From positions 1 to 64,000 of the forward strand of contig DAIDHB010000112.1 of the NCBI GenBank assembly GCA_027452145.1: a stretch of 64,000 bases of DNA, read 5' to 3'. The notes beneath the pieces are model-generated. The model worked only from the letters and a program-made list of their open reading frames with translations, was not told where the DNA came from and did not search any database. The stretch comes from Planctomycetales bacterium. Lineage in GTDB: Bacteria; Planctomycetota; Planctomycetia; Isosphaerales; Isosphaeraceae. The translations under genes and the position numbers were made by a program. Of the stretch, positions 6,665 to 62,260 are shown piece by piece (position 1 is the first letter of the stretch; each line of letters starts with the position of its first letter).

Positions 6665-6797
6665 TCGCGTCGCCAGCGGTTTGCGACTCCTCGCCCGAAG
6701 GCCGGATCTCGCATCCGGATCCGGACAACGGCCGGGCGCCCGGCCGGTTGACCCGTCCGGCCGGCGCCGTTACGATCGGCTGGAGGACCGGACGGCG

Positions 6798-6853
6798 GAA
6801 AGCAGAGAACAGAGAACCGAGCACGGACGACGCACAACGGACAACGGACAAAA
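6798..6853 (+). repeat. 7-bp periodic array (eight degenerate heptamers)
   Basis: Eight consecutive heptamers of the pattern GAnAACG (for example GAGAACC, GACGACG, GACAACG) end 8 bp before the surE start codon. The same periodicity occurs at 27020-27124 and, in the opposite orientation, at 40333-40367. No ribosome-binding site is visible between the array and the ATG. Confidence 0.7.
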
Positions 6854-6861
6854 AACCAACG

Positions 6862-13900: not shown

Positions 13901-14106
13901 GCATCGACCAGCCGAGCGCGGCCACGGTCGCCTGGAGCGGGATCAACCAGGCCGTCGAGCCGAGCCCGGGCCTCAAGATCCGTCTGTTCGACTTCCCCTG
14001 GACGAACCCCCACCCCGAGAAGGAGATCGCCACGCTGGACGTCCTCTCCGCCGGCAAGGACTGCGACCCGTTCCTCGTCGCGCTAACGCTCGAGCGCAAC
14101 CGGTAA
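10945..14106 (+). CDS. ECF sigma factor fused to membrane anchor and carboxypeptidase-regulatory-like domains
   Basis: A 1053-residue protein. Residues about 45-115 form sigma region 2 (ALVERHGAMVWQVCRSVLGD, DAEDACQAAFLVLARR) and about 145-215 sigma region 4 (LPEPFRAAVVSCDLEGLTYE, then a helix-turn-helix ending GTVQSRLARGRSRLR). A membrane segment follows (about 283-305, VVTLAMTFLVTGVTAATALV). The outer part holds several carboxypeptidase-regulatory-like/CnaB-type beta domains (GSVVDRQGRPVEGVEM, GRVVEAGTGRPVPGAIV, GLVRDPTGRPLPGVEV) and a C-terminal beta domain (YVVHYTDGTTAQ ... WTNPHPEKE). This suggests a transcription factor held at the membrane, released or gated by an outside signal. The start has GAGGAG seven bases upstream. 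No separate anti-sigma gene is adjacent. Confidence 0.85.
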   Translation: MRTAPAAQHGGDAGGLPGSLRRLFAAGALGGLTDGQLLDRFLRGGREADADAGADAEAAFAALVERHGAMVWQVCRSVLGDRHDAEDACQAAFLVLARRAGSIRRGESVASWLYGVARRVALRARRDASRRRELERRRLERTAAEEPISPPPADPWPELYEELDRLPEPFRAAVVSCDLEGLTYEQAAVLLGCPVGTVQSRLARGRSRLRNRLERRGIAPAVVGVVIGATGPAVRAASSLPSALSESITRAACGVGAGRTIAAAVPAAAASLAGAEVRRQLMRRVVTLAMTFLVTGVTAATALVLASAGRDGGPRPRQQQQPIAVAKAAPATFHIRVVEVDGKPAPGVAIETRTLDRPVRTFMSGPDGRATIPSGAIGEYGSLIARRGRDVLAWAAYVGLQPDRPAGTEDAPIVMRLLPVDHRVEGSVVDRQGRPVEGVEMTAELLSHETTNGVFMSVNTREPLVDTVLTDRQGRFAMRLPRDTNVSLHAVHPRLIGDRLHVKPDQDRLAPLALRPAGSIAGRVVEAGTGRPVPGAIVGAQYIERIERIIAAWGDARADAQGRFLIGGLEPGVYNLVLVAVPGRPELTARAIEGIRVRLDESTSAELSVMTGRPLRVDVVDRDTGQLQPGMEVGCYGPAHPRSGAAVDMRKTDDQGRVTFRVPPGEQRLYVAAGDNFNNRLASRTVVVPEQGELEPVRLFSQRANTTGMMMGMMKAAGPPPEKAANLPPVAKADVQAANPGRPPAPAEAPEGDGQPAPKAADPNARILTGLVRDPTGRPLPGVEVRISGTENVVATDRDGVFELTEVPAGVVRIDLQRYGGAFQNETVPAGRDRAEFKLAPDTYASPDENVPAVDEPIPADLRDRLTFVDLQRDGNDSLADGPAGGGNDLNRVPRGTHRLGTTYFRIGEKMVHVEGRLRPDLPRAVKGIPVHARADLLHFLHGAQYGGNSDVLIGAYVVHYTDGTTAQASMVLGKNLANWWQFPRRIDQPSAATVAWSGINQAVEPSPGLKIRLFDFPWTNPHPEKEIATLDVLSAGKDCDPFLVALTLERNR

Positions 14107-14448
14107 GAGTCTGTCTCGACAGCCCACGAAGTGGGCGTCAGGACGTAGCCGGGGGGCGTCAGCCCCCCGGAACGCCTCCTCGCCATTATTTCACCCTCCC
14201 GGCCGCGACCCCGCCGCGCGGGGTTGCGGCCGGGAGGGTCCGTCGCGAGGATTTGGCTTTGTGGCGCGGCGGTCCGAGTCCGGTCCGGGGGGCTGACGCC
14301 CCCCGGCTACGTCCGATCGCCCCCTGACGGGGGCTGGGAACCTCGATGTGTGGCGCGGCGGCGCGAGCCCGACCCGGGGGGCTGACGCCCCCCGGCTACG
14401 TCCGATCGCCACCTGACGGGGGCTGGGAGTCCATCCAGGAGAGACTCT
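14106..14448. mobile_element. Palindromic MITE-like element, copy 1
   Basis: A 343-bp element. Left end AGAGTCTGTCTCGACAG; right end, read inward, AGAGTCTCTCCTGGATG. Internal modules are a hairpin around CGGGGGGCGTCAGCCCCCCG, a long stem around CCTCCCGGCCGCGACCCCG, and two tandem copies of a unit containing GGGGGGCTGACGCCCCCC and CCCCCTGACGGGGG. It begins on the last base of the sigma fusion's stop codon. No coding capacity. Confidence 0.8.
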
Positions 14449-14602
14449 CAGACCCGGCACTGCCCGCTTGCAACGCCCCGCCGGCTGGTCCATCCTGGGG
14501 CAAGACAGGACGACACCCCGCGAGGGCCGGTGATACGCCCGGCTTGGCCGCCTCGCCCTCGATCCGCAGCCAACCCAGCCAACCGGGAGGGACGACACGA
14601 TC

Positions 14603-18950: not shown

Positions 18951-20087
18951 ATGATCCACCGTCTTCGCATCCAGCACTTCAAGAGCATCGTGGACGTGGA
19001 CATGGATCTCTCGGCGGTCACCGTGCTCGTCGGCAAGAGCGGAACCGGCAAGTCGAGCTTTGTGCAGGCGCTGCGGTTTCTGCGGGACGTGCTGGCCCCC
19101 AAGCCGGGTGTGGAGCATTCGTGGCCCTACTTGCGGCCGATCGTGGCTCCGGATGCGCCAACGTCCTTTGATGTCGAATTCTCCGTGGCCGGCATCGACG
19201 AGAGGTTCCGCTACGAATTGTCGATGCATCCGGACGGTCCGGGAAGACCTCCGGAAAACGAGCGCCTGACTCTCGGTGAGAAATGCCTGTTCCACCAGGG
19301 CAAGGCCGCCGGACAACGTGTTTCGAGCTGGCTGGTCGAGCCCGACCTGATCCAGGTTCCGCCGGCCGGTCCGATTGCCCTGAGGGGGATTCCTTCGGTC
19401 TCCGAGATCGTGATCGCGTACACGGCCCTGACCGCGGGAATCGGCTGCTACATCTTCTCGGACGACGTGCTCAGTCAGGCGACCAGGAAGGATCAACCAA
19501 CGGACGGTCTCGCCGATGACGCAGGGAACTTCCTTCGCGTCGTCAAGGACATCGTCAGCAACCTGCAAGATCTCGGCGTCCGCAAGAGCATCGTCTCGGC
19601 GCTCCAGCGACTGAACCCCTCGATCGCGTCCGTCGAACTGGACAACATCCAGCAGCCGACGAGGGTGGTGGTCGGCCACCGGTTCGGCGGCAAGGTCGTG
19701 GCCCTGGACCTGTCCCAGGAATCCGACGGCTTCCGGCGCTTCTATGCCCACCTGCTCGCCATTTATCAGCGCCCGCCGAAGCAGACGCTGATCTTCGAGC
19801 ACCCCGAGGACGGGATCCACCCGGGCGCGCTGGCGCTTCTGGCCGAGGAGTTCCAGGCGGCGTCCGAAACGGGCCGCGGGCAGGTCATCCTGACGACCCA
19901 TAGTCCCAGACTTCTTGATCAGTTCAAGGTGGATCAGATCCGCGTGGTCGAGCTCGATGGCCCGGCAACCCGGATCGGCAAGGTCTCGGCCGAGCAGGTC
20001 GAGGCCATCCGCGAGGGACTACTCGAGCCCGGCGAGTTGCTCACCGTCGACCCGGCCCGGCTACAAATGGAGGCCGCCGGGGCATGA
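18951..20087 (+). CDS. AAA ATPase (OLD/ABC-like), partner of the TOPRIM protein
   Basis: A 378-residue P-loop ATPase. Walker A is GKSGTGKS at residues 28-35, right after the typical opening MIHRLRIQHFKSIVDVDMDL. The Walker B region is TLIFEHPEDGIHPGAL with the PE-x-x-hHP signature, and the H-loop is ILTTHSPRLLDQF. This layout matches AAA_15/AAA_21 ATPases of the OLD, PARIS (AriA) and related defence systems. The last 4 bases overlap the next gene (ATGA), so both are co-translated. It probably works as a sensor or clamp that controls the TOPRIM partner; the role in phage defence is an inference. Confidence 0.85.
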   Translation: MIHRLRIQHFKSIVDVDMDLSAVTVLVGKSGTGKSSFVQALRFLRDVLAPKPGVEHSWPYLRPIVAPDAPTSFDVEFSVAGIDERFRYELSMHPDGPGRPPENERLTLGEKCLFHQGKAAGQRVSSWLVEPDLIQVPPAGPIALRGIPSVSEIVIAYTALTAGIGCYIFSDDVLSQATRKDQPTDGLADDAGNFLRVVKDIVSNLQDLGVRKSIVSALQRLNPSIASVELDNIQQPTRVVVGHRFGGKVVALDLSQESDGFRRFYAHLLAIYQRPPKQTLIFEHPEDGIHPGALALLAEEFQAASETGRGQVILTTHSPRLLDQFKVDQIRVVELDGPATRIGKVSAEQVEAIREGLLEPGELLTVDPARLQMEAAGA

Positions 20088-20758
20088 GGCGGCTGATCCT
20101 GTTCGTCGAGGGAGACGGCGAGACCGACGCGATGCCCGTGCTCGTGAGGAGAATCCTGACAGAGCACGGGCTGTGGGGCGGCATCACGCTCGACGAAGAC
20201 ACGTTCCGGGTGGGCTCGGTCGAAAAGCTGGTGAAGGCGGACTACAAGGACTGGAAGCGCTTCCTGGGAGCCAGTCTCAAGCGGCGCGATGTCGGCGGAG
20301 TCCTGCTGATCCTCGATGGCGACGCCGACAGGGTCGCAGGGAAGCCCTTCTGCGCGGCCGAGGTGGCCCGGTCGCTGGCCGTCGCCGCGAGACAGGTCGG
20401 GGCGGGCCGGACGTTCTCGGTCGCGGTCGTTTTTGCCCGGCAGGAATACGAGACCTGGCTGATCGCGGGAGTAGCCTCACTGGCGGGCCAGCGATTGCCG
20501 GACGGACGCCTCGTCGCCGCGAATACCGAGGCCCCGGAGGGCGACCTGGAGGTCGCGCCCCGGGACGCCAAGGGCTGGCTCCAGGGCGCCGTCGAGGGAG
20601 GCTACAAGGAGACCCGGGACCAGGCCGCGTTGACCCGACTGGTCGACCTCCCGACCATTCGCGCCCGCAACCTCCGATCCTTCCGACGGCTCGAGTCGGC
20701 CCTGTCAAGCCTGACCGAGGCGATCCGATCGGAGGCCCACATCGCCTCGCCCGCCTGA
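20084..20758 (+). CDS. DUF4276 TOPRIM-like protein, nuclease candidate
   Basis: A 224-residue protein coupled by a 4-bp overlap to the ATPase. The N-terminal FVEGDGETDAMPVLVRRIL carries the first acidic motif of TOPRIM-like folds, and LLILDGDADR the D-x-D motif. FARQEYETWLIAG is the conserved core of DUF4276. OLD proteins combine ATPase and TOPRIM nuclease in one chain; here they are split, as in PARIS (AriA/AriB, the latter with a different TOPRIM family). The predicted activity is nucleic-acid cleavage controlled by the ATPase. The target is unknown. Confidence 0.78.
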   Translation: MRRLILFVEGDGETDAMPVLVRRILTEHGLWGGITLDEDTFRVGSVEKLVKADYKDWKRFLGASLKRRDVGGVLLILDGDADRVAGKPFCAAEVARSLAVAARQVGAGRTFSVAVVFARQEYETWLIAGVASLAGQRLPDGRLVAANTEAPEGDLEVAPRDAKGWLQGAVEGGYKETRDQAALTRLVDLPTIRARNLRSFRRLESALSSLTEAIRSEAHIASPA

Positions 20759-22292: not shown

Positions 22293-22376
22293 CCGTCCGG
22301 CCCGCGTCTGATGCGGATCCCCTGCGGACCGGCCGGAGAGCCGATCACCGACCGGCGTCGCCGCGTTCCGGGCCCG

Positions 22377-22535
22377 CCGGCCCCGGCGGCCGGGGTCGCC
22401 CGGCCCGCGGGCTTCGCGAGGGGTTAGAGGTTAGGAGTCAGGGCCGAGGAGAACCCGGCCGTTGCCGACGGTCGCGGTTCGGGCGGTCCGGCCCGGGGCA
22501 CCAGTCGCCACTGGCCACTCCGTCCGACCGCCGTC
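22377..22535 (+). repeat. Cassette-boundary repeat, copy A
   Basis: About 150 bp. The segment 22381-22423 is identical to 25401-25443 in copy D. The shared core is GAGGAGAACCCGGCC followed by GCCGACGGTCGCGGT. It lies between the ART-like module and the Phd/RelE pair and reads in the + direction like the other copies. Confidence 0.75.
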
Positions 22536-22660
22536 CGGCGCGGGTCGAGCGGTTTGCCTCGGGGCATTCGCCGGGGCGAGGTGCCGGCTTCGCCTTGGCA
22601 GAGTTCCCCGACCGTGATAGCATCAAATCCGATGCAAATCTCGTGCAGGGGGCCCGGGCC

Positions 22661-22957
22661 ATGCTGGATCTCAGCCGCGACATTCAGTCGCTGTCGAACT
22701 TCAAGCGCAACACGCCGGAGTTCCTCCGCCAGTTGAAGCAGACCGGCCAGCCCGTTGTGCTGACGGTCAACGGCAAGGCTGAGCTGGTGGTGCAGGACGC
22801 CGCATCGTTCCAGAAGCTGGTCGAGCGGGCTGAGCGGGCCGAGCGGCTGGAGGCCCTGCGGGAATCGGTCGAGGACATGAGGGCCGGTCGCGTCTCGCCG
22901 ATCGAGGATATGCTCGACGAGATGCGGCAGATCCTCGCGGAAAAGTCGGGCCGATGA
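22661..22957 (+). CDS. Phd/YefM-type antitoxin
   Basis: A 98-residue protein starting at the ATG at 22661 (MLDLSRDIQSLSNFKRNTPE), preceded by a GGGGG run. The N-terminal half is the Phd/YefM DNA-binding and dimerisation domain, with the pattern LKQTGQPVVLTVNGKAELVVQDA. The C-terminal half is helical and acidic, as expected for the toxin-wrapping segment. It probably represses its own promoter. The toxin gene starts one base after its stop. Confidence 0.9.
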   Translation: MLDLSRDIQSLSNFKRNTPEFLRQLKQTGQPVVLTVNGKAELVVQDAASFQKLVERAERAERLEALRESVEDMRAGRVSPIEDMLDEMRQILAEKSGR

Positions 22958-22958
22958 C

Positions 22959-23267
22959 GTGACCTATCGGATCGTGATCACGGCGCGGGCGAGGGCCGAT
23001 GTCCTCGAGTCCTTCCGGTGGCTGGTGGAGCGCTCGCCGGACGCCGCGACTCGCTGGTATGCGGGGCTTCAAAAGGCCATCGCCGGACTCCGCAAGCTCC
23101 CCGGCCGGCACCCGATCGCCGAGGCTGAATCGGAGCTGCTGGGCATCACGATGCGCCAGGCACTCCACGGCCTCCCGAACATTTACCGCATCCTGTATTC
23201 GGTCGAGGGAGACACCATCGTGGTGCATCTTGTGCGCCACAGCGCCCGAGGGCCGATCGAGCCGTGA
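22959..23267 (+). CDS. RelE/ParE-family toxin
   Basis: A 102-residue protein with a GTG start one base after the antitoxin stop codon. The sequence opens with the strand and helices typical of the ParE group (YRIVITARARADVLESFRWL ... AATRWYAGLQKAIAGL) and ends with the core strands YRILYSVEGDTIVVHLVRHSARGP. RelE toxins cut mRNA on the ribosome, ParE toxins block gyrase; the C-terminal VVHLVRHSAR favours the ParE side, but this is not decisive. Confidence 0.88.
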   Translation: MTYRIVITARARADVLESFRWLVERSPDAATRWYAGLQKAIAGLRKLPGRHPIAEAESELLGITMRQALHGLPNIYRILYSVEGDTIVVHLVRHSARGPIEP

Positions 23268-23274
23268 GCCTGGC

Positions 23275-23445
23275 GGGGGCCGGCGCCGGTCTCCGAGAGG
23301 GTCGTGGTGGGCTCGCCACTCGCCGAAAGGTGCACGGGGCGAGGAGGACCCGGCCGGTGCCAGCGGTCGTGGTGCGGGCGTCGGGCCACCGGGGCCGATT
23401 GGGGCGGTGCGGTGCGGTGCTTGCCACTCGCCAGTTGTCAGTCTG
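23275..23445 (+). repeat. Cassette-boundary repeat, copy B
   Basis: The core GGGGCGAGGAGGACCCGGCC at about 23335 is followed by GCGGTCGTGGTGCGGGCG and a CTTGCCACTCGCC end. It lies between the Phd/RelE pair and the PIN/DUF433 pair, in the + orientation. Confidence 0.7.
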
Positions 23446-23530
23446 GTTGATCGATCGCCAGCCGGTTGGGGAAAGCCTGGCCTTCGCCCGATGGGACGTC
23501 GAAAGAACGGCGCCGGAGGGAGCCGGGCTT

Positions 23531-23866
23531 CTACAGGAACTCGACTCGGTTCTCCATCTCGTCCGGGTCGTAGATCTCCCAGATCAGGACGAGCATTGCG
23601 ATGACCTCGCCCAGGCTCTTCGTGTCCTTGTCGCAATACGCGATGCCGGGATGCGGCACGCCGGCCGCGTGGAGGCGCAGGAAGTCCCGGTCCTGGGTGA
23701 AGATCACCCGTCCTTGCGGCCTGGCGTACGCGAGTTGCTCCTCGTCGCTCGCGTTCAGCAGGCCGGCCTCGGGCGTGGTGGTGACGTCGACGCCGCGTCG
23801 GCGCAGGCCATCGGCGATCGCCCGATGGGCGTTCTCATCGAGGTGAAAGCGGATTGTCCGGGCCAT
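23531..23866 (-). CDS. DUF5615 PIN-like toxin
   Basis: A 111-residue protein (MARTIRFHLDENAHRAIADG). The N-terminal FHLDEN provides the first acidic residue of the PIN-like fold, and VIFTQDRDFLRL supplies the central D-x-D. These motifs define the DUF5615 / Mut7-C-like PIN family, predicted ribonucleases in VapC-type modules. The gene overlaps the upstream DUF433 gene by 32 bp, so the two form an operon with the antitoxin first. Confidence 0.85.
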   Translation of the reverse strand: MARTIRFHLDENAHRAIADGLRRRGVDVTTTPEAGLLNASDEEQLAYARPQGRVIFTQDRDFLRLHAAGVPHPGIAYCDKDTKSLGEVIAMLVLIWEIYDPDEMENRVEFL

Positions 23867-24242
23867 GGGCCTCCCGTGCCTGGGCCTGGGCCTTGAGCCG
23901 CTCCTGCAATCGCGAGGGGCCAGCCTTTGCCTTCAGCTCCTCGGCGAATTTCTTCCCGGCCTCGATGTCGGCGTCGATGCGCTCGCGGTTCTCGAAGTAA
24001 TAGGCGAGGGCGCCATGGACGTCGGCGAGCGTGAGGCTCGGGTAGGCCGATACGATCTCGTCGGGGCTCATGCCCATCCGTTCGTGCCAGACGGCCACGT
24101 CCTCGACGGTGATCCGGTGGCCGTCGATGCGCGGCCGGCCGCCGCACGTACCGGGGGTGCTGACGATCCGCACGCGGTCGAGCGGCGGGTCAGTCCACGG
24201 TTCATTGACGCCAGGGGGATTCGAAACGGTCGTGGATTCCAT
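23835..24242 (-). CDS. DUF433 antitoxin (VapB-like)
   Basis: A 135-residue protein. The core IVSTPGTCGGRPRIDGHRIT followed by VEDVAVWHERMGMSPDEIVSAYPSLTLADV (quoted here as a region, residues about 26-75) is the DUF433 winged-helix signature, with the conserved G-x-P-x-I-x-G-T/H-R-I pattern. DUF433 proteins are antitoxins that bind DNA and neutralise PIN-like partners. The C-terminal 50 residues are helical and charged and probably hold the toxin. Confidence 0.87.
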   Translation of the reverse strand: MESTTVSNPPGVNEPWTDPPLDRVRIVSTPGTCGGRPRIDGHRITVEDVAVWHERMGMSPDEIVSAYPSLTLADVHGALAYYFENRERIDADIEAGKKFAEELKAKAGPSRLQERLKAQAQAREAHGPDNPLSPR

Positions 24243-24293
24243 GGCTTTTATCCTACCCCGAACGCACCTTGGCCGGCCAGCCGGACTCGCACG

Positions 24294-24420
24294 ATGGAAG
24301 GGATCAGGGCCGAGGAGAACCCGGCCGGGGCCGACGGTCGCGGTGCGGGCGGCGGGCGGCCGGCGCGGATCGGGTCGGGCCGGTCCATGCCGCTTGCCCC
24401 TCCGACCGGACGGACGGCCG
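24294..24420 (+). repeat. Cassette-boundary repeat, copy C
   Basis: The core GAGGAGAACCCGGCCGGGGC and CGACGGTCGCGGTGCGGGCG are nearly identical to copies A and D. It lies between the DUF433 gene and the DUF4058 gene, in the + orientation although both neighbours are on the minus strand. Confidence 0.72.
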
Positions 24421-24453
24421 ATCGGCCGATCGACCGGATCGGGTCGCCTCGGC

Positions 24454-25230
24454 TCAGCGTGCCGAAGCGGGTACGAATTGCCGCGCCCACGCCGCGTCGG
24501 CGGCCGGGAGGGCGGGTTCGGGGCTGCCCTCGTAGATGAAGCGCTCGTAGCCGGCGCCGTCGTAGGCGAGGTTCAGGGCTTCCTGGAGGTCCAGCGGCAC
24601 GGCCTCGTCGGGTGATCGCAGCGGGATCGGAATGACCGGCAGGCGGTCCCTCAGCCGGATCGGCCAGAAGGCGGCGTCCCGGCCGGTGCCGGCACGGTGG
24701 ACCGTGACCGAGTAGTCGCACTCGGGCCGGTCCGCCGAGGGCATCGGCGCCCAGCCGCGCAGGAGGTCGAGCTCCACCAGGTGGGCCGGGCTTCGCAGCA
24801 ATTCGCGGCGCTTCGCGAGATAGGCCTCGCGGTCGCCCCCGGCGCGCTTGTTCGATGGGCTCAGGAGCTCGATCACCGTCACCAGCTCCCGGCCGCGTCG
24901 GTCGCGGATCTCCAGGTACGGGACCTCCTCGACGTCCTCCTCCGGCAGCCGGATGATCGCCGGAGCTTCCAGAAGGCCGACGCCCCGCGCGGCCGGCCCG
25001 GCCGTGCTCGAACGCGCCAGCGAGAGGTCCGCATCCCCCACGCGATGCCGTGACCCGGACTCAGATAGCACGTCGTGGATGTAGATATGCTCGTCGAGCT
25101 GGACGAAATACTCGGGCCCGATCCGCGGGATGAGGAGCCGGCGGGAGACTGTGAGAAGCTCGGTCTGAAAGTCGAGCCAGTGGGCCGACTGCTCGAGATA
25201 CGGATTCATGCCCGGAAACGGTGACGGCAT
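24454..25230 (-). CDS. DUF4058 family protein
   Basis: A 258-residue protein that begins with the diagnostic MPSPFPGMNPYLE. The conserved middle (VTVIELLSPSNKRAGGDREA) and the YLAKRRELL helix match DUF4058, a family common in planctomycetes and cyanobacteria. The VIELLSPSNK segment has the E-x-K-like spacing seen in PD-(D/E)XK nucleases, so a nuclease fold is possible but not shown. Its position in a row of toxin-antitoxin modules suggests an accessory role. Confidence 0.82.
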   Translation of the reverse strand: MPSPFPGMNPYLEQSAHWLDFQTELLTVSRRLLIPRIGPEYFVQLDEHIYIHDVLSESGSRHRVGDADLSLARSSTAGPAARGVGLLEAPAIIRLPEEDVEEVPYLEIRDRRGRELVTVIELLSPSNKRAGGDREAYLAKRRELLRSPAHLVELDLLRGWAPMPSADRPECDYSVTVHRAGTGRDAAFWPIRLRDRLPVIPIPLRSPDEAVPLDLQEALNLAYDGAGYERFIYEGSPEPALPAADAAWARQFVPASAR

Positions 25231-25399
25231 CGGACCACCTCATCGCCCTGCCCGGGGCCTGGAGCCGGCCCGCGCCTCGCCTCCGCGCCGCAGTCCGGGT
25301 CCAGGATTCGTGACGGATTCGATTGTCGCACGAACCGGTCCGAACAGCCAGCCGGCCCGGCGCAACCGGCCGCGGAGCGGCCCCGGTCCAGGCCTACCT

Positions 25400-25560
25400 G
25401 CCCCGGCGGCCGGGGTCGCCCGGCCCGCGGGCTTCGCGAGGGGTCAGGGGTCAGGGAGCAGGGGCGAGGAGAACCCGGCCGGGGCCGTCGGGCTGGCACT
25501 GGTCTTCGATCGGGCCGGGCCATACTTGCCACCGGTCGCTCGCCACCGCCGTCGGTCGTC
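25400..25560 (+). repeat. Cassette-boundary repeat, copy D
   Basis: The segment 25401-25443 is identical to 22381-22423 in copy A, followed by GGGGCGAGGAGAACCCGGCC and an end CTTGCCACCGGTCGCTCGCC. It lies between DUF4058 and the antitoxin gene, in the + orientation. The rest of 25231-25671 is GC-rich without a gene. Confidence 0.78.
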
Positions 25561-25671
25561 CGCCGGCCGGCCCGGCGGGGCGGGGGGCATGTCGTTCCTG
25601 ACCGTGACGGAGCCGCGAGACCCGATCCGAACGGGGCGGGGATGGTGCGGCGTGCAGGCTTTCAGAGACTT

Positions 25672-25917
25672 TCAGAGCCCCAGATCCTTCCGCAGGTCGG
25701 CCATCGGGATCGACGCCTCCTCGGCCGAGAGATCTCTGAGAAACCCGAGGAAATCCGGCTGGTTCCGGAGGATTTCCACCTCGACCTCGAAGTCCTCCAG
25801 GGGCGCCACGGCGAACGCCGAGCCGTCGGGCCGGCGCAGGACGACGACGCCGTCCCTCGCCAGGCCCATGACCTCCTCGAGCGTCGGATGCTTCTCGGCA
25901 AGCTCGATCACCGTCAT
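25672..25917 (-). CDS. Antitoxin of a RelE-type module, partner of a broken toxin
   Basis: An 81-residue protein (MTVIELAEKHPTLEEVMGLA ...). The pattern VVVLRRPDGSAFAVAPLEDFE resembles the short Phd-like antitoxins that follow RelE toxins in toxin-first operons. The start codon overlaps the stop of the toxin reading frame (ATGA). The toxin is interrupted by a mobile element, so this antitoxin is now an orphan unless another promoter drives it. Confidence 0.72.
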   Translation of the reverse strand: MTVIELAEKHPTLEEVMGLARDGVVVLRRPDGSAFAVAPLEDFEVEVEILRNQPDFLGFLRDLSAEEASIPMADLRKDLGL

Positions 25918-26124
25918 AGCGGAACCTCCCTGTCGCCGATGCGCAGGATGTTGTGGACCTTGTGCCCCACGGCCTTGATCTTCACGACCCCTCGTTCGTC
26001 GTCGTCCTCGCTATCGATCTCGACGTCGTAGAACACGCGGAAATCCTGGATGCGTCGCTCCCAGTCGGAGAGTTCGTTATCGCCCAGGCGCTTGCGGTTG
26101 CGGGTCTCGGTGGTCGGCTCGTGG

Positions 26125-26129
26125 CTGAG
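26125..26129. repeat. Target-site duplication, left copy (CTGAG)
   Basis: The bases CTGAG flank the MITE on the left; the same five bases are at 26557-26561. One copy is needed to restore the toxin reading frame. Confidence 0.8.
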
Positions 26130-26556
26130 AGGCTGTCCCGGAAGGGTTCCCAGCCCCCGTCAGGGGGCGATCGGACGTAGCCGGGGGGCGTCAGCCCCCC
26201 GGACTCGGACCGCGGCGCCACTCACCGAGGTTCCCAGCCCCCGTCAGGGGGCGATCGGACGTAGCCGGGGGGCGTCAGCCCCCGGGCTCGGACCGACGCG
26301 CCACTCACCGAAGTTGCGAGCCTCCGTCAGGGGGCGATCGGACGTAGCCGGGGGGCGTCAGCCCCCCGGACTCGGACCGCGGCGCCACTCACCGAATCCT
26401 CGCGACCGACCCTCCCGGCCGTGACCCCGCCACGCGGGGGCACGGCCGGGAGGGTGACACAGATGTCGGGGAGATGAGGGTTCGCCTGGCGTCCCGGGGG
26501 GCTGACGCCCCCCGGCTACGTCCTGTCGCCCACGTCGTGGGCTTCCGAGACAGACT
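26130..26556. mobile_element. Palindromic MITE-like element, copy 2, inserted in the toxin gene
   Basis: A 427-bp element, in the opposite orientation to copies 1, 3 and 4. Terminal inverted repeats read inward as AGGCTGTCCCGGAAG (left) and AGTCTGTCTCGGAAG (right). It carries three tandem copies of the 80-bp unit with CCCCCGTCAGGGGG and GGGGGGCGTCAGCCCCCC, one CCCTCCCGGCCGTGACCCCG long stem and one terminal hairpin. There is no coding capacity, so transposition must depend on a transposase elsewhere. Confidence 0.88.
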
Positions 26557-26561
26557 CTGAG
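26557..26561. repeat. Target-site duplication, right copy (CTGAG)
   Basis: Identical to 26125-26129 and directly next to the right terminal inverted repeat of the element. Confidence 0.8.
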
Positions 26562-26799
26562 TTGCTCGTCGATCGCGTCGAGGATGATCTTCTGCTCGAA
26601 CTTGCGATAGGCCCGCACGTGCCCGGCGGCGGTCGGTGTGAATGCGATCTCAAAGCTCATCGTGATTCGACTCGCCGGGCCGCACGGTCCCACAAGCTGA
26701 TTCTACGGCAACGCCGTGGCGAGCGGCAACGGCCGGCGGCCGGGCGGATTGGCCGGCAGTCCGACGGCCCCACCGCCGGTCCCGGCCCACCGGCCCTAC

Positions 26800-26960
26800 C
26801 GGTCCAGGTCGCCCGACCCGCGGGCGGGCGGGGGCCGTCGCTTCGCGAGGGGCGAGGGGGCAGGGGCGAGGAGGATCCGGCCGGGGTCGGCGGCGGTGCG
26901 GGCGGTCCGGGGACCGGGGCCGACCGGGCCGGGCCAGGGCGAGGCTGTACTTGCCGCCGG
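26800..26960 (+). repeat. Cassette-boundary repeat, copy E
   Basis: The core GGGGCGAGGAGGATCCGGCC is followed by GGCGGTGCGGGCGGTCCGG and a TACTTGCCGCCGGCC end. It lies upstream of the broken RelE gene and before the VWA cluster, in the + orientation. Confidence 0.7.
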
Positions 26961-27147: not shown

Positions 27148-28392
27148 TCACTCGGGCCGGACGCCGCAGCGCTGGGCAAGCGCGGTGAGGTCCTGGCCCT
27201 TCAGGGCGCCTTCGAGCAGCGGGGGCAGCATCGTCGGCGTGCAGCCGAAGCAGGGGACGCCGGCCTCGGCGAAGCGGCGGGCCATCGACTCATCATGGCT
27301 GGGGACGCCCGAATCGGAGAGCGCCAGCAGGCAGATGACGCGCACCCCCGAGGCCACCAGGTCCTCGACCTGCCGGACCAGCTCGCGGGCGTTGCCCCCC
27401 TCGAACAGGTCGGTAATAATGATGAACAGACTTTTGCGCGGGTCGTGGATGAGGCCCCGGCAATAGGTGACGGCGCGGTTGATATCCGTGCCGCCGCCGA
27501 GCTGGACGCCGAAGAGGATGTCCACCGGGTCGTGGCATTTTTCGGTCAGGTCGACGACCTCGGTGTCAAAAGCGACGACGTGGGTCTCGAGCGCCGGCAA
27601 GGTGGCGAGGATCGCGCCCATCACGCCGCCGTAGACGACCGAGTCGGCCATCGAGCCGGACTGGTCCATGGCGACGATGACGTTCCACTCGCGGCGACGG
27701 TGCTGGCGGGCGAAGAAGTGGAACGAGTCGGGGATCACGATGCGTCGGGTGGCATCGTAGTTCTTGAGGTTGCGGCGGATGGTGCGGGCCCAGTCGAGGT
27801 TGGACAGGCTGCGGATCGGGCTGTGCCGCGAGCGGTCGAGCGCGCCGCGCACCGCCTGCTCGAGCCCGCCGCGGAGCCTCTTGACGATCTCGTCGACGAC
27901 CGCGCGCACGACCTCGCGCGCGGTCTCCTTGGTGCGCTCGGGAATCATGCCCTTGAGCGACATCAACGTGCCGACCAGCTCGACGTTCGGCGTGACCTGG
28001 CCGAGGGTCTCGGGCTCGAACAAAAGCTGCCTGAGCCCCTTGCGCTCGATCGCGTCGCGCTGGATGACGGCGACGACGTCCTTGCTGAAGTAGCCGCGGA
28101 TGTCGCCCAGCCATCTGGCCAGCCGCGGGGCCGACGCGCCCAGGCCGGCGCCGCGTTTGGCGGAGCGGGACTGCCCGCCGGCCCGTCCCGCACCCGTTGC
28201 GCCGGCTGCCGCGGCCCCGGCCGCGCCGGTTGACTCGCCTTCGGCGCCGTAGATCTCGCCCAGGGCCTCGTCGAGCGCGCGCTGATCGTCGTCGAGCAAC
28301 TCACCGACCGGACAGCCGGTGAGGGCGCACAGGCCCTCCTCGGCCTGGCGGCCGAGGATCAGGCGCCAGCGGGTATAGCGGTTCGTCGTCAT
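27148..28392 (-). CDS. VWA-domain protein (CoxE/YehP-like) of the MoxR conflict cluster
   Basis: A 414-residue protein starting at 28392 (MTTNRYTRWRLILGRQAEEG). An Ala/Gly-rich linker follows the first 50 residues. The C-terminal von Willebrand A domain has the MIDAS motif D-x-S-x-S in AMDQSGSM, the GGGTDI loop and IITDLFEGG. VWA proteins of this type act with MoxR ATPases as substrate adaptors. It is the last gene of the cluster read from 36365 to 27148; the combination resembles E. coli yehLMPQ. Confidence 0.88.
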   Translation of the reverse strand: MTTNRYTRWRLILGRQAEEGLCALTGCPVGELLDDDQRALDEALGEIYGAEGESTGAAGAAAAGATGAGRAGGQSRSAKRGAGLGASAPRLARWLGDIRGYFSKDVVAVIQRDAIERKGLRQLLFEPETLGQVTPNVELVGTLMSLKGMIPERTKETAREVVRAVVDEIVKRLRGGLEQAVRGALDRSRHSPIRSLSNLDWARTIRRNLKNYDATRRIVIPDSFHFFARQHRRREWNVIVAMDQSGSMADSVVYGGVMGAILATLPALETHVVAFDTEVVDLTEKCHDPVDILFGVQLGGGTDINRAVTYCRGLIHDPRKSLFIIITDLFEGGNARELVRQVEDLVASGVRVICLLALSDSGVPSHDESMARRFAEAGVPCFGCTPTMLPPLLEGALKGQDLTALAQRCGVRPE

Positions 28393-28450
28393 GGGCGGGG
28401 GTCTCCGGGTCGGCTCGGGGGATCTCGCCGCAGGCTCGGGGAAGCGTCGT

Positions 28451-28580
28451 GTAGGGTGGGCATCGCCCACCGACTGAGGGCCTCGACCGGTGGGCGATGC
28501 CCACCCTACGCCATCAAATACCGTCAGGCTGGAAAGCCTGACCTACGTGGCCTCGACCGGTAGGCGATGCCCACCCTATC
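28451..28580. repeat. GTAGGGTGGGCATCG palindrome cluster
   Basis: A perfect 22-bp inverted repeat (28451-28472 and 28488-28509; starts GTAGGGTGGGCATCGCCCAC) is separated by 15 bp. The smaller hairpin GTCAGGCTGGAAAGCCTGAC (28523-28542) and a third half-copy (28552-28580) follow. It fills most of the gap between the VWA and DUF5682 genes. Confidence 0.8.
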
Positions 28581-28599
28581 ACCGTTCCGAAACCGACAT

Positions 28600-31014
28600 T
28601 CAAAAGTCCAGATCCAGATCGCCGAGCTGTTCCTGGAGCAAGCGGGCTTCCTCGTCGTCGAGCTTCGCGTCGACGGCGGCCGCGAGCTGGTCGGCGCCGT
28701 CGCGGGAGATCTCGGCGAGGTTGGAGACGACGCGGCGCGTCTCGCCCGGTTCGAAGGCGCCGAAGGCGCGGCGGAGGAACACCAGCGCGTGGCGGAAGGC
28801 GTCCTCGTCGAGCGAGACGATATAGGCGTCGAGCTGCCTCCAGAGCGATAGCCGCGAGAACAGGGCCATCCGGTTGTGCGCGACCAGTCCCTCGAACCAG
28901 CCGGCGCCGAGCTCGGCGTCGACGCCCGGCGATAGCCGGCGGGCGACCTCGCGCGCCAGCTCGTCCTCGCCGATGCGCCCGCGCTCGAGAGCCATCGAGC
29001 AGCACAGGCCCGACAGAAAAGGGTTGAGCGCGTCCGACGCGGCAATCGCGTCGAGCTCGGCGTCCCAGCGATCGGCGTCGACCAGCTCGGCGTGCTCGGC
29101 GGCGACGTCGCGGAGGATCAGGATGCCGCTCCGGACCTCGTTCGCCGCATCGCGATCGCAGATGCACGCCGAGCGCACCACCAGCGTCGCGCGGAGGAAG
29201 AGCTGGGCCAGCAGCGGCTTCAAGGGCTCGGGGTCGATGCGGCGGACCGAGCCGTACCGGATCGTCTCGGCGAGGCTGGCGGCGGCTCGCGCGGGCGGCA
29301 GGAACCCGGCGGCATCCACGGCCATCGCCTGGAGGCGGGCGCGGGCGTCCTCGAGCGCGTCGGCCAGGCGGCAGCGGGCGGCCTCCTGCACGATCGCGGC
29401 GGCCTCATCCACGCGGTCGCAGGCGGCCAGGCGTTCGGACAGCCGCATCGCGGCGGCCAGCTCGATCGTGTCGCCCTTCAGCGCCGACTCGACAAGCTGG
29501 ATCTCGCACTCGGGCGTCCATCGCAGCCGCCAGCGTTCCTTCCAGGTCGCACCTTCCTGCCCCACGTCGACGGGCGCGGCAAAGGGGACTTCCAGCAGCC
29601 GGATCCGATGCAGGAAGATACTCCGCTCGCGGTCGAGGAACGCGGTCGCCTCGGTCTTGGCGAACCGGTCCTCGCGCAGGTCGAGGTCCAGCTCCTGGAC
29701 GGTGTCGACCTGGAATTTCACCAGCCGAAGGCGCTCGAGGAGCAGGTAGAAATCCTCCTGGATCGAGGTTCTGCTGATCCCGGCGGGCAGGGTTCCGACG
29801 GCGTGGCCGACCTCGACATCGGTCAGGAACGGTCGGATCGAGGCCGGCTCGCCGCGGCCCAGGCAGGTGACGGCGGCGTCGCGCAGGTCGCGCAAGGTCG
29901 GCGCCGGCGAGCCGGCCAGCGCGGCGAGTCCCCGCGCCAGGCGGACGGCCTCGATCGCCTCGGCCGCCGAGGGGACCTGTCCGCCATCGCGCATCCGCCG
30001 GCAGAGCTGAGCGATGAACCGAGCCGGCAGGTCGGCGGCCTGGCTGTCGAGCCGCGCGCGGTACATCGCCTGAAAGTAGGCCGGCGCGTGGTTGCCCGCG
30101 CCGTAGCCCGACTGCGAGCTCAGCCGGTAGTAGCTGTACGGCATCAGCGTGAGGCTCGTTGGCGTGGTCGGCAGCGCGGCGAGCTCGGCGTCGGTCATCG
30201 GCTTCGCCTCGACCGACAGCGCCGGCGCATGGAATGCGCCGCAGACGACGAGGACGCGCGCCGGGTCGTGCCCGTCGTCGAGCACCGCGCGGATCTGCCG
30301 GCGCATGAAGGCCTCGCGGACGAGGTTCTCGTCCTCGGGCGGTAAATCCCGATACTCGCGCAGGCCGCGGCCGAACTCGTGGATGGCGCGCACGTAAGCC
30401 GACGGGTCGTCGGTCTGCTCGAAGTGCCGCTCCCACCAGGTCTCGTGGTCGACCTCGCCGGCCAGCCGGGCGATCTCCTCATAGGGGTCGTCCAGGTAGG
30501 CGCGCGTGTGCTCGCTGGCGGCGCGGGGACGGGGGCGGCCGGGAGTGGTCTCGGGCTCGGGCTCGGACTTCGGCTCGGTCGGTGGTTCCGGGGCTTCCGA
30601 TTTCGGCGTCTCATCGGGCTCTGGCCGGTCGTGCGTGTGGTGCAGCTCGAGGAACACTGCGGCGGGCAGGTCGATGAAGCGGGTCTCGGCGCTGTGGCGG
30701 ATGCCCCAGGTCAGGGCGACCCACTCGGGCGAGTATTCGGCCAGGGGATAGAGGATCGAACGCACCGGGCGGGTCTGGGTGTAGGCTAAAAGCGCGACGG
30801 GCGGACGGGTGTCCTTGTGGACGAGGTGGCGGACCTGCTCGGTGGCGTCGGAGGGTCCCTCGACCAGGACGGCGGTGGGCTTCATCGCGTCGAGCACGGC
30901 CGCCAGGTGCGCGCCGGCCGACGGCGAGAGATGCCGCACGCCGAACACGCGCGCCAGCGGCCGGGCACCGTCGCCCGCCTCGGGGAAGATCCGGTCGAGA
31001 TCGAGATTCGGCAT
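28600..31014 (-). CDS. DUF5682 family protein (YehM-like)
   Basis: An 804-residue protein starting at 31014 (MPNLDLDRIFPEAGDGARPL). The N-terminal region has the motif VFGVRHLSPSAGAHL and AVLVEGPSDA, and the middle VLVVCGAFHAPAL. These are the conserved blocks of DUF5682; the EGP and H residues are reminiscent of erythromycin-esterase/TIKI-like folds with a putative metal site, which is an inference. A proline/glutamate-rich linker lies near residues 150-195. The C-terminal 450 residues are helical. An upstream in-frame extension is translated repeat DNA and I excluded it. Confidence 0.85.
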   Translation of the reverse strand: MPNLDLDRIFPEAGDGARPLARVFGVRHLSPSAGAHLAAVLDAMKPTAVLVEGPSDATEQVRHLVHKDTRPPVALLAYTQTRPVRSILYPLAEYSPEWVALTWGIRHSAETRFIDLPAAVFLELHHTHDRPEPDETPKSEAPEPPTEPKSEPEPETTPGRPRPRAASEHTRAYLDDPYEEIARLAGEVDHETWWERHFEQTDDPSAYVRAIHEFGRGLREYRDLPPEDENLVREAFMRRQIRAVLDDGHDPARVLVVCGAFHAPALSVEAKPMTDAELAALPTTPTSLTLMPYSYYRLSSQSGYGAGNHAPAYFQAMYRARLDSQAADLPARFIAQLCRRMRDGGQVPSAAEAIEAVRLARGLAALAGSPAPTLRDLRDAAVTCLGRGEPASIRPFLTDVEVGHAVGTLPAGISRTSIQEDFYLLLERLRLVKFQVDTVQELDLDLREDRFAKTEATAFLDRERSIFLHRIRLLEVPFAAPVDVGQEGATWKERWRLRWTPECEIQLVESALKGDTIELAAAMRLSERLAACDRVDEAAAIVQEAARCRLADALEDARARLQAMAVDAAGFLPPARAAASLAETIRYGSVRRIDPEPLKPLLAQLFLRATLVVRSACICDRDAANEVRSGILILRDVAAEHAELVDADRWDAELDAIAASDALNPFLSGLCCSMALERGRIGEDELAREVARRLSPGVDAELGAGWFEGLVAHNRMALFSRLSLWRQLDAYIVSLDEDAFRHALVFLRRAFGAFEPGETRRVVSNLAEISRDGADQLAAAVDAKLDDEEARLLQEQLGDLDLDF

Positions 31015-31049
31015 CGCGTTGGCCCGGATCGTTAGGGTCCCGGAATAAA

Positions 31050-31290
31050 AATTCGGATTTAACCGCGAAAAACGCGAAAAACGCGAAAGAAGAATGGGAT
31101 GAGAATCCCGGCACTTCTCGCCGAAAACCACTGGCTTGAGCTCAGCCTGCCCGAGTGGATCAATCGCGCCGTGGGGCAATTCATCGAGTTCCACCGAGTG
31201 TTTTTCATTTCCTTTTCGCGTTTTTCGCGTTTTTCGCGGTTAAATCCGAATTCCCTTTCCTGTTGTCTGGCGGTTAAATCCGAATTCGCT
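31050..31290. repeat. CGCGAAAAA inverted-arm element, copy 2
   Basis: Two perfect 38-bp arms, left 31050-31087 (starts ATTCGGATTTAACCGCGAAA) and the reverse complement at 31214-31252, surround about 125 bp of unique sequence. A third partial arm (GCGGTTAAATCCGAATTCGC) is at 31270. The element occupies the gap between the MoxR and DUF5682 genes. Confidence 0.85.
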
Positions 31291-31348
31291 ATTCCCGTAC
31301 TCTGCGGTTGAAGTCGATTTGCGGCGGGGACCGGATCTCTGCCGCGGA

Positions 31349-32527
31349 TCACGCGAGTTCCTTGCAGGCCAGGTAGAGCTCGCGCCAGTCGGCGCCTCGT
31401 TTTTTCATGATGTTTTCGAGGTACTCGACCCAGATCGGGCCGTCGCGGGCGTCTTCCTTGATGATGACGCCGTGCAATCCGGCGGCGAGGTCGCGGTCGG
31501 TGACGACGCCCTCGCCGAAGTGGCCGGCCAGGGCCATGCTGTTGCCCAGCAGGCTGATCGCCTCGGCGGCGGAGAGCACGCCGGAGGGAGGCTTGACCTT
31601 CTGCTTGCCGTCGAGCGTCTGGCCGCGGCGCAGCTCCTGGAAGATCTGGACGACCTTGCGCACGGCCTCCTCGGCCGGCGGGGGCGCGGGCAGTCGGAGG
31701 CTCGAGCCGATCTCGGCCACGCGCCTCGAGACGATGCGAACCTCGGTCTCGACATCGGCCGGCACGGGCAGCACGACCAGGTTGAACCGCCGCTTGAGCG
31801 CCGCCGACATGTCGTTGACGCCGCGATCCCGGGTATTCGCGGTGCCGATCAGGTTGAACCCGCGCCGGGCGGCCAGGTGGAAGCCCAGCTCGGGGACGGC
31901 CATGACCTTTTCCGAGAGCAAGGTGATCAGGCCGTCCTGGACCTCGGAGGGGCAGCGGGTGATCTCCTCGAACCGGACGAGCTTGCCCCGCTCCATGGCG
32001 CGGTAGACCGGGCTGGCGACGAGGGCGCGGGGGCTTGGTCCCTCGGCCAGCAGCAGGGCGTAGTTCCAGCTATAGCGGATCTGTTCCTCGGTGGTGCCGG
32101 CCGTGCCCTGGACGAGCAGCAGGCTGTCCCCCGAGATGGCGGCGGCGAGGTGCTCGGAGAGCCAGCTCTTGGCCGTGCCGGGCTCGCCAATCAGCAGCAG
32201 GCCGCGGTCGGTGGCCAGGGTTGCGATGGCGATCTCGACGACCCGTTCGTTGCCCAGGTACTTGGGCCGGATCTCGACCCCGCCGGCCTTGCCGCCGAGG
32301 ATGTAGGTGCGCACGGCGCGCGGCGAGAGGTTCCAGCCCTCGGGGCGCTCGTTCCGGTCCTCGGCCGCCAGCGCGGCGAGCTCATCGGCGTACTCGACCT
32401 CGGCCGGCCGGCGGAGGATGTCGACGGCGGCGCCGTTGGCGGGGGTCGCGGTCGCGGCGGAGCCGTTGTCCGTGGCGTCGGGGGGCGTGTCGGTCGTTTT
32501 CGACTTGCTCGCGGCGGTCCTGGCCAT
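31349..32527 (-). CDS. MoxR-type AAA+ ATPase (YehL-like)
   Basis: A 392-residue protein. The start at 32527 has GGAG six bases upstream. An Ala/Thr-rich N-terminal tail precedes the ATPase core: Walker A GEPGTAKS, Walker B LVRFEEI, sensor 1 IGTANTRDRG and the arginine-finger region KRRFN. MoxR ATPases act as chaperone-like remodellers with VWA partners. The gene lies in the cluster order SWIM, HEAT, MoxR, DUF5682, VWA, all on the minus strand. Confidence 0.92.
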   Translation of the reverse strand: MARTAASKSKTTDTPPDATDNGSAATATPANGAAVDILRRPAEVEYADELAALAAEDRNERPEGWNLSPRAVRTYILGGKAGGVEIRPKYLGNERVVEIAIATLATDRGLLLIGEPGTAKSWLSEHLAAAISGDSLLLVQGTAGTTEEQIRYSWNYALLLAEGPSPRALVASPVYRAMERGKLVRFEEITRCPSEVQDGLITLLSEKVMAVPELGFHLAARRGFNLIGTANTRDRGVNDMSAALKRRFNLVVLPVPADVETEVRIVSRRVAEIGSSLRLPAPPPAEEAVRKVVQIFQELRRGQTLDGKQKVKPPSGVLSAAEAISLLGNSMALAGHFGEGVVTDRDLAAGLHGVIIKEDARDGPIWVEYLENIMKKRGADWRELYLACKELA

Positions 32528-32615
32528 CGGGGGCTCCATCGGATGTTGGGATAAGACCGTCTCGGTCGAGGTCGGAGGTTCTAGCAAAGTGAGGGCAGGT
32601 ACCTCAAAGATTCAG

Positions 32616-32875
32616 AGTCTGTCTCGGAAGCCCACGAAGTGGGCGTCAGGACGTAGCCGGGGGGCGTCAGCCCCCCGGACCGCCAGGCGAACCCCCATCT
32701 CCCCGACTTCCGTGTCACCCTCCCGGCCGCGACCCCGCCCCGCGGGGTCGCGGCCGGGAGGGTCGGTCGAGAGGATTGCGTGTGTGGCGCTGCCGTCTGC
32801 CCCCGGGGGGCTGACGCCCCCCGGCTACGTCCGATCGCCCCCTGACGGGGGCTCAGAACCCTTCCGGGATAAACT
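32616..32875. mobile_element. Palindromic MITE-like element, copy 3
   Basis: A 260-bp element with ends AGTCTGTCTCGGAAG and, read inward from the right, AGTTTATCCCGGAAG. It is flanked by TTCAG (32611-32615) and CTCAG (32876-32880), a 4-of-5 match to a target duplication. It has one copy of the 80-bp unit. It lies between the HEAT and MoxR genes of the conflict cluster. Confidence 0.85.
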
Positions 32876-32907
32876 CTCAGTGCCAGGCCTCATTTTGGTA
32901 TTGGCTG

Positions 32908-40383: not shown

Positions 40384-40643
40384 GAGTCGGTTCCAGAAGC
40401 CCACGGAGTGGGCGCCAGGACGTAGCCGGGGGGCGTCATCCCCCGGAACGCCGGACGAACACTTGCCTCCCCGCCATTGTGTCACCCACCCGGCCGCGAC
40501 CCCGCGTGGCGGGGTCGCGGCCGGGTGGGTCCGTCGAGAAGATTGGGTGTGTGGCGCGGCGGTCCGAGCCCGGGGGGCTGACGCCCCCCGGCTACGTCCG
40601 ATCGCCCCCTGGCGGGGGCTGGGAGCCCTGCCGGCACAAACTG
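40384..40643. mobile_element. Palindromic MITE-like element, copy 4 (degraded ends)
   Basis: About 260 bp with the same internal modules as copy 3: hairpin GGGGGGCGTCATCCCCCGG, long stem around CCGGCCGCGACCCCGCGTGG, and one unit with GGGGGGCTGACGCCCCCC. The ends (GAGTCGGTTCCAGAAG, CTGCCGGCACAAACTG) are mutated and no target duplication is visible. Confidence 0.78.
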
Positions 40644-62153: not shown

Positions 62154-62260
62154 GAACAGTATCAAGGGGCGAGGAGGAACCGGCCAGGGGAGGCGGCGGC
62201 CGGACGGACCGGACGGGATCGGATCGGGAGGCCGGCGGCGGGTCGGGTCGTGGCCCCGCA
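62154..62260 (+). repeat. Cassette-boundary repeat, copy F
   Basis: GGGGCGAGGAGGAACCGGCC at about 62167 matches the core of copies A-E, in the same + orientation, but the rest is more diverged. It lies next to a 5'-truncated gene, so it may mark another module boundary. Confidence 0.55.

What the first reader, a model, noticed from the sequence alone, without database searches (positions are those of the whole stretch)
22377..26960. Row of toxin-antitoxin-type modules separated by same-orientation repeats: a cassette-like array
Five copies (A-E) of an otherwise unexplained repeat of about 150 bp lie at 22.38, 23.28, 24.29, 25.40 and 26.80 kb. Each interval (0.9-1.4 kb) contains exactly one accessory module: Phd/RelE, DUF433/PIN, DUF4058, antitoxin/RelE. 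The genes lie on both strands, yet all repeats point the same way. 43 bp are identical between copies A and D. This layout resembles integron cassette arrays, but no integrase is in the window and no attC consensus was confirmed. A sixth, diverged copy is at 62.15 kb beside a truncated defence gene.
Basis: partly seen in the sequence, partly recalled or inferred. Interest (0 to 1): 0.82.

Follow-up and report, generated by a model that had tools for sequence, protein, structure and literature searches.

The report
Toxin-antitoxin cassette arrays between spacer repeats
A bacterium, probably a planctomycete, keeps some of its toxin-antitoxin and nuclease-like genes in rows separated by same-direction copies of a locus-specific spacer, and at one such row a related species holds different genes in a different order, so the rows behave like cassette arrays although no integron machinery was found.

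Summary
Five direct spacer copies (22.35-26.94 kb) separate Phd/ParE, DUF433/PIN, DUF4058 and a ParE-like module split by a MITE-like insert; 10 of 10 copy pairs beat 200 shuffles each. The repeat occurs at this locus only: 8 single hits in 44 relatives all fall in predicted genes.

The main result lies outside the coordinates. In 1.71 Mb of this genome, locus-specific spacer repeats within 8 kb form 54 direct pairs and 1 inverted pair. They lie near 14 of 38 DUF4058/ParE loci but 4 of 136 background points. Array C494 is homologous to arrays in a congener: Uma2 and XRE/ImmA cassettes are shared at about 90%, but neighbours and order differ, with joints inside the repeats.

An integron is not supported: no integrase over cut-off, no attC-like pair (weak test), no unusual folding. 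Best explanation: modules insert with duplication of the target spacer, as inferred in print for restriction-modification genes, and homologous recombination between copies then adds, drops and reorders modules. Both steps are inferred. Against generality: 11 of 14 full-length DUF4058 loci lack such repeats.

The parts
22348..22499 (+). spacer repeat copy A
   Evidence: 86% over 112 bp to D, 94% over 49 bp to C, 70% over 165 bp to E; all pairs beat 200 shuffles
22661..22957 (+). Phd/YefM antitoxin gene
   Evidence: PF02604, 40.8 bits, cut-off 29.8
22959..23267 (+). ParE toxin gene
   Evidence: PF05016, 30.8 bits, cut-off 23
23336..23429 (+). spacer repeat copy B (left half of the unit missing)
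   Evidence: 78% over 96 bp to C
23531..23866 (-). PIN-like toxin gene
   Evidence: PF18480 DUF5615, 65.4 bits; PF18478 PIN_10, 30.6 bits, cut-off 26.2
23835..24242 (-). DUF433 antitoxin gene
   Evidence: PF04255, 72.6 bits
24299..24402 (+). spacer repeat copy C (left half of the unit missing)
24454..25230 (-). DUF4058 gene; predicted Uma2/PD-(D/E)XK-like fold
   Evidence: PF13267, 218 bits; model pLDDT 83.7, best aligned chain 1wdj, Z 8.9 over 117 residues
25373..25491 (+). spacer repeat copy D
   Evidence: 45 identical bases shared with A
25672..25917 (-). small ORF, presumed antitoxin partner
   Evidence: no Pfam or NCBIfam family; overlaps the toxin stop codon (read by eye)
25914..26126 (-). 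C-terminal part of a ParE-like gene
   Evidence: PF05016 positions 43-85 of 89, 18.4 bits, below cut-off 23
26127..26558 (.). MITE-like insert splitting the ParE-like gene; not part of the array's repeat
   Evidence: many copies elsewhere in the genome; terminal inverted repeats seen by eye
26559..26660 (-). N-terminal part of the split ParE-like gene
   Evidence: start codon and frame read; no ParE match on its own
26761..26935 (+). spacer repeat copy E
62165..62213 (+). weak sixth copy, possibly only the genome-wide heptad motif
   Evidence: 84% over 49 bp to E; heptads at 36 places

Best explanation
The region is a recombinase-less cassette array. Small accessory modules (toxin-antitoxin pairs and Uma2/DUF4058 nuclease-like genes) enter a non-coding spacer, and the spacer is duplicated at each entry, so every module ends up between two copies pointing the same way whatever the module's own strand. 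Once there are several copies, homologous recombination between them can drop, add or reorder modules and can produce partial copies. Shown: locus-specific direct repeats, mixed gene strands, the same layout at several loci with different repeats, and different module content and order between two species with joints inside the repeats. Inferred: that entry itself duplicates the spacer, and that RecA-type homologous recombination does the shuffling.
For: 54 direct against 1 inverted locus-specific spacer pair; 20 direct clusters against 1 inverted pair; 3 shuffled sets gave 0 local pairs. 14 of 38 module loci against 4 of 136 background points have such repeats nearby, p = 1e-7; leaving out the three loci known before the test, 11 of 35, p = 5e-6. 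In 16 of the 20 clusters whose genes were compared, 11 had no paralogous pair inside. C494 against the congener G001: Uma2 unit 90% over 1174 bp with VapBC-like genes on its left in G000 and DUF4058 in contig C467; XRE/ImmA unit 90% over 2299 bp followed by Uma2 in contig C239 but by a repeat and contig end in G000; the C239 joint falls inside repeat sequence. Longest exact repeats inside these contigs are 32 bp or less, so chimeric assembly is unlikely. XRE/ImmA homologues in four other genomes match only over the genes, without repeats. Indels of 4, 7 and 1 bases between two C494 copies show the repeat is not coding. In print, restriction-modification genes are inferred to insert with long, variable target duplications (passages of PMC3031569; Discussion of PMC2869330).
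Against: 11 of 14 full-length DUF4058 loci, and 24 of all 37 DUF4058 matches, have no such repeat within 2.5 kb. No empty site with a single spacer copy was found, so duplication on entry is not shown. In the A-E array the most alike copies, A and D, are not neighbours, which simple serial insertion does not predict. The A-E array has no orthologous array to compare. In C228 part of the spacer similarity comes with a recent DUF4058 gene copy, and the 62-67 kb array of C112 uses gene fragments as its repeat. Arrays have longer spacers (median 469 against 236.5 bp), which gives more room for matches.
Confidence: 0.55

Rival explanations
1. Passive scars: spacers were duplicated by ordinary tandem duplication and slippage, and selfish modules later fell between the copies because such places tolerate insertion. 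The repeats play no part in moving modules.
For: Tandem duplication also gives direct repeats only; the genome is rich in spacer repeats of other kinds; copies are diverged (70-94% in the A-E array) and partial.
Against: Module order and neighbours differ between G000 and G001 at homologous repeats, with a joint inside a repeat. Locus-specific repeats are rare away from module loci (4 of 136 points).
Confidence: 0.27
2. Tandem duplication of a spacer-plus-gene unit followed by replacement of the gene copies through recombination in the flanking spacers.
For: Some arrays do hold paralogous genes: two DUF4058 copies 96% alike in C228, three DUF4058 in C244, TPR genes in C28.
Against: In the C494, A-E, C452 and C30 arrays no two genes are paralogous at E 1e-3, and genes lie on both strands, which unit duplication does not give.
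Confidence: 0.1
3. A chromosomal integron or a cluster of attC sites without integrase.
For: The layout, the content in toxin-antitoxin pairs and the direct repeats resemble super-integrons (passage of PMC2654758).
Against: No integron integrase over cut-off in the whole genome (best 78 bits against 265); no attC-like core pair in 30 array spacers (about 0.6 expected, so weak); no unusual folding in six copies tested; a different repeat in each array.
Confidence: 0.02
4. Independent insertions of one mobile non-coding repeat (REP or MITE).
For: REP- and MITE-like elements are common here.
Against: The A-E unit is confined to this locus and all copies are direct.
Confidence: 0.03

Closest known systems
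Insertion with long target duplication (restriction-modification genes, Helicobacter pylori; Nobusato et al. 2000)
   Same: A selfish gene module lies between direct copies of host sequence, of variable length, without a transposase; described in passages of PMC3031569 and PMC2869330. The original paper was not read; its title was seen in reference lists.
   Different: Here toxin-antitoxin and Uma2/DUF4058 modules, several in a row at one spacer, with reordering between species; an empty site was not shown.
Transposed Arabidopsis genes with flanking repeats (Woodhouse et al. 2010)
   Same: Direct repeats of host sequence flank moved genes; the authors suggest recombination between tandem copies and reinsertion of the circle (abstract and Discussion read).
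   Different: A plant, single genes, mostly genic repeats; no arrays of defence-type modules.
Super-integrons and attC clusters lacking an integrase
   Same: Rows of toxin-antitoxin cassettes between direct repeats; content changes.
   Different: No integrase, no attC hallmark, and a different repeat at each locus.
Uma2 cassettes of cyanobacteria (COG4636)
   Same: Uma2, a predicted PD-(D/E)XK nuclease listed as a likely solo toxin, occurs in gene rows (passage of PMC2701414).
   Different: Those rows are of paralogous genes; here the genes between repeats are mostly unrelated.

Membership tests
Integron or attC cluster | integron integrase in the genome | tested here: not met
   TIGR02249: 13 partial matches, best 78.1 bits, none over the cut-off of 265; genome 99.91% complete in 556 contigs
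Integron or attC cluster | attC core pairs (RYYYAAC ... GTTRRRY; motif recalled) in the repeats | tested here: not met
   0 in 30 array spacers (15,357 bases) against 10 in 814 others (253,882 bases); only about 0.6 expected, so weak
Integron or attC cluster | repeat folds as a stable single-strand hairpin | tested here: not met
Insertion with long target duplication | module flanked by direct copies of locus sequence, no transposase | tested here: met
   no transposase among the array proteins scanned
Insertion with long target duplication | empty site with a single copy in a relative | tested here: inconclusive
   no relative with the empty A-E or C494 site was identified
Insertion with long target duplication | duplication length variable and locus-specific | tested here: met
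   each array has its own repeat, about 50-240 bp
Composite transposon or MITE | flanks are an IS or a genome-wide element | tested here: not met
   26-base core found only at this locus
PD-(D/E)XK nuclease, Uma2-like (DUF4058) | shared core fold | tested here: inconclusive
   1wdj Z 8.9, rmsd 2.7 over 117; 3ijm Z 8.5; Foldseek alone gave nothing at E 0.001 or better
PD-(D/E)XK nuclease, Uma2-like (DUF4058) | conserved acidic and lysine active-site residues | tested here: inconclusive
   19 sequences: D155 and E121 invariant, D68 and K128 at 90% or more; the spacing was not checked against a solved active site
Type II toxin-antitoxin modules | recognisable toxin and antitoxin families | tested here: met
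   Phd/YefM with ParE and DUF433 with PIN-like over cut-off; the fourth module is below cut-off and broken

The most novel reading that the evidence does not exclude
These arrays are an integron-like gene-capture system that needs no integrase: RecA-type recombination uses a locus-specific spacer as the attachment site, and the Uma2/DUF4058 nuclease-fold cassettes themselves make the nicks or cuts that open spacers and cause their long duplication, so that nuclease cassettes recruit toxin-antitoxin cassettes.
Probability: 0.12. Interest if true: 0.87.

Novelty: new variant of a known kind. Interest (0 to 1): 0.63.

Why it matters
How toxin-antitoxin and similar selfish modules move without transposases or integrases is an open question. 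Here the repeats mark the joints, the modules can be compared between species, and the same layout recurs at several loci of one genome, so insertion with target duplication and recombination between spacers become directly testable in strain collections. It would also explain how islands of small defence-type genes grow module by module.

Tried and rejected
Integron: no integrase over cut-off, no attC-like pair in array spacers, no unusual folding. A known RNA family: none at gathering score in 20-30 kb. A genome-wide element: only the heptad part is genome-wide. The repeat in other species: the 26-base core gave 1 Streptomyces contig in genome contigs, a 24-base form of it 2 in viral contigs, and one hit each in 8 of 44 family genomes at 2 mismatches (control 0); all 8 lie in predicted genes and their similarity does not run beyond about 36 bp; the Streptomyces and viral hits were not examined. 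Flanking VWA/DUF5682 locus in seven relatives: no A-E repeat and none of the array's modules in the stretches read. A census of 63 stretches of about 20 kb found 9 families of three or more dispersed direct copies; by eye only A-E and one REP cluster were spacer repeats, one was a repeated gene fragment and the rest looked coding. Literature: ten searches, listings only except the passages cited; none listed a description of such arrays, and DUF4058 is named in no held paper. Foldseek's own ranking of DUF4058 gave unrelated chains at the top.
Full report
Setting. That it is a planctomycete is my inference from gene content and recall; no call names it.

The observation. Spacers between 21.8 and 27.15 kb carry five copies of one unit, all on the + strand. 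In all 10 pairs the local alignment score exceeds that of 200 dinucleotide shuffles. A and D are closest: 86% over 112 bp with 45 identical bases. B and C lack the left half. Between the copies lie Phd/YefM-ParE (+), DUF433-PIN-like (-), DUF4058 (-) and a small ORF with a ParE-like gene (-). The ParE-like gene is split by a MITE-like element that has many copies in the genome.

Local or genome-wide. One ingredient, heptads of the form GGGGYYA ahead of GGGGCGAGGA, is found at 36 places on both strands (control 1), several of them as hairpins. The whole unit is not: the 26-base core with up to two mismatches occurs five times in G000, all in the array, and in 8 of 44 other family genomes once each. 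All 8 lie inside predicted genes, with similarity of about 36 bp at most, so they look like chance.

Census of spacers. I took 1.71 Mb of G000 (59 pieces) and predicted genes with a small hexamer model of my own, which recovered the array's intact genes. Among 844 spacers, similarities within 8 kb that are locus-specific (at most 2 distant spacers match) number 54 direct pairs and 1 inverted pair; without that filter the numbers are 81 and 14. Three shuffled sets gave none. The 54 pairs form 20 clusters, 8 of them with three or more spacers; 7 of those 8 hold DUF4058 or ParE genes and the eighth (C28) is a row of TPR paralogues. One of the 7 (C112, 61-67 kb) uses gene fragments, not a spacer, as its repeat, and in C228 part of the similarity comes with a recent DUF4058 copy.

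Association with modules. DUF4058 (37 matches) and ParE (8 matches) collapse to 38 loci; 14 have a locus-specific repeated spacer within 2.5 kb against 4 of 136 background points (p = 1e-7), or 11 of 35 when the three loci known beforehand are left out (p = 5e-6). Against this, only 13 of 37 DUF4058 matches have it, and 11 of the 14 full-length ones do not. The pieces were fetched partly because they hold these genes; the background comes from the same pieces, away from the genes.

Content of the arrays. In 16 of the 20 clusters I compared the genes inside. Five hold related sequences (C244, C228, C28, the second C112 cluster, C229); in the other 11 no two genes match at E 1e-3 (four clusters were not compared). 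Array C494 holds DUF4058, an RHH-like/PIN pair (the RHH below cut-off), Uma2, an unnamed gene pair and an XRE/ImmA gene between six repeat copies. Genes lie on both strands in C494, A-E, C244, C228, C452 and C30.

Shuffling between species. In congener G001, contig C467 reads PIN, DUF4058 (-), Uma2, with homologous repeats between them. Its Uma2 unit matches C494 at 90% over 1174 bp, but the left neighbour is DUF4058, not the RHH/PIN pair. Contig C239 reads a PIN pair (-), XRE/ImmA, then the start of Uma2; XRE/ImmA matches at 90% over 2299 bp up to C494 46031, and the next base but two matches C494 41196, so the joint falls within repeat sequence. Exact repeats inside C494, C467 and C239 are at most 32 bp, so mis-assembly is unlikely though not excluded. 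XRE/ImmA homologues in G003, G018, G006 and G021 match over the genes only. The DUF4058 of the A-E array is 77% identical in DNA to the one in C467, over the gene only, so one module sits in two arrays with different repeats.

Mechanism. Modules from outside carry no array repeat, yet inside an array every module lies between two copies. The simplest account is that entry duplicates the spacer. This is inferred in print for restriction-modification genes, which insert with long and variable target duplications (passages), and for Arabidopsis genes through circles made by recombination (abstract and Discussion). Later recombination between copies accounts for the reordering. I did not find an empty site, and A and D being closest although not adjacent is unexplained.

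DUF4058. Nineteen sequences share invariant E121, S124, D155 and L204 and nearly invariant D68 and K128. The model (pLDDT 83.7) aligns best to 1wdj (Z 8.9) and 3ijm (Z 8.5); 1wdj is named as the representative of DUF820/Uma2, a PD-(D/E)XK family (passage). Foldseek alone found nothing significant. A Uma2-like nuclease fold is likely, not proven.

Verdict. It works like a cassette array but, by the tests run, is not an integron. I file it as a new variant of insertion with long target duplication.

Noticed in passing
window 26127-26558; also 14106-14451, 32612-32880, 40384-40638: MITE-like element with inverted ends, many copies in the genome, here splitting a ParE-like gene.
   Followed up: partly
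G000 genome-wide, e.g. L043, L046, L047, L049, L050: Heptad repeats GGGGYYA ending in GGGGCGAGGA, several as long hairpins and some just after stop codons; 36 places with control 1.
   Followed up: partly
window 62372-63064 and contig C112 64337-64450, 65777-66404: Fragments of a DNA phosphorothioation-associated methyltransferase gene repeated in one direction, with a DUF4058 gene between two of them.
   Followed up: partly
window 18951-20755: AAA ATPase plus partner resembling the candidate defence pair HEC-01A/B, just upstream of the array.
   Followed up: no
window 27151-32539: VWA_CoxE, DUF5682 and AAA_5 (MoxR-like) genes; the VWA gene is closer to copies in other genera than to that of a congener.
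   Followed up: no
L143 (G000:C556:60001-80000): Cluster of GGGAGGGCGAG-type REP elements, some read through in frame inside long ORFs, beside an ORF that looks by eye like a REP-associated transposase.
   Followed up: no
G000:C228 10048-11285: A recent DUF4058 copy (93% to 6533-7423) lies directly between two copies of a 170-base sequence (85% alike), as a target duplication would give.
   Followed up: partly
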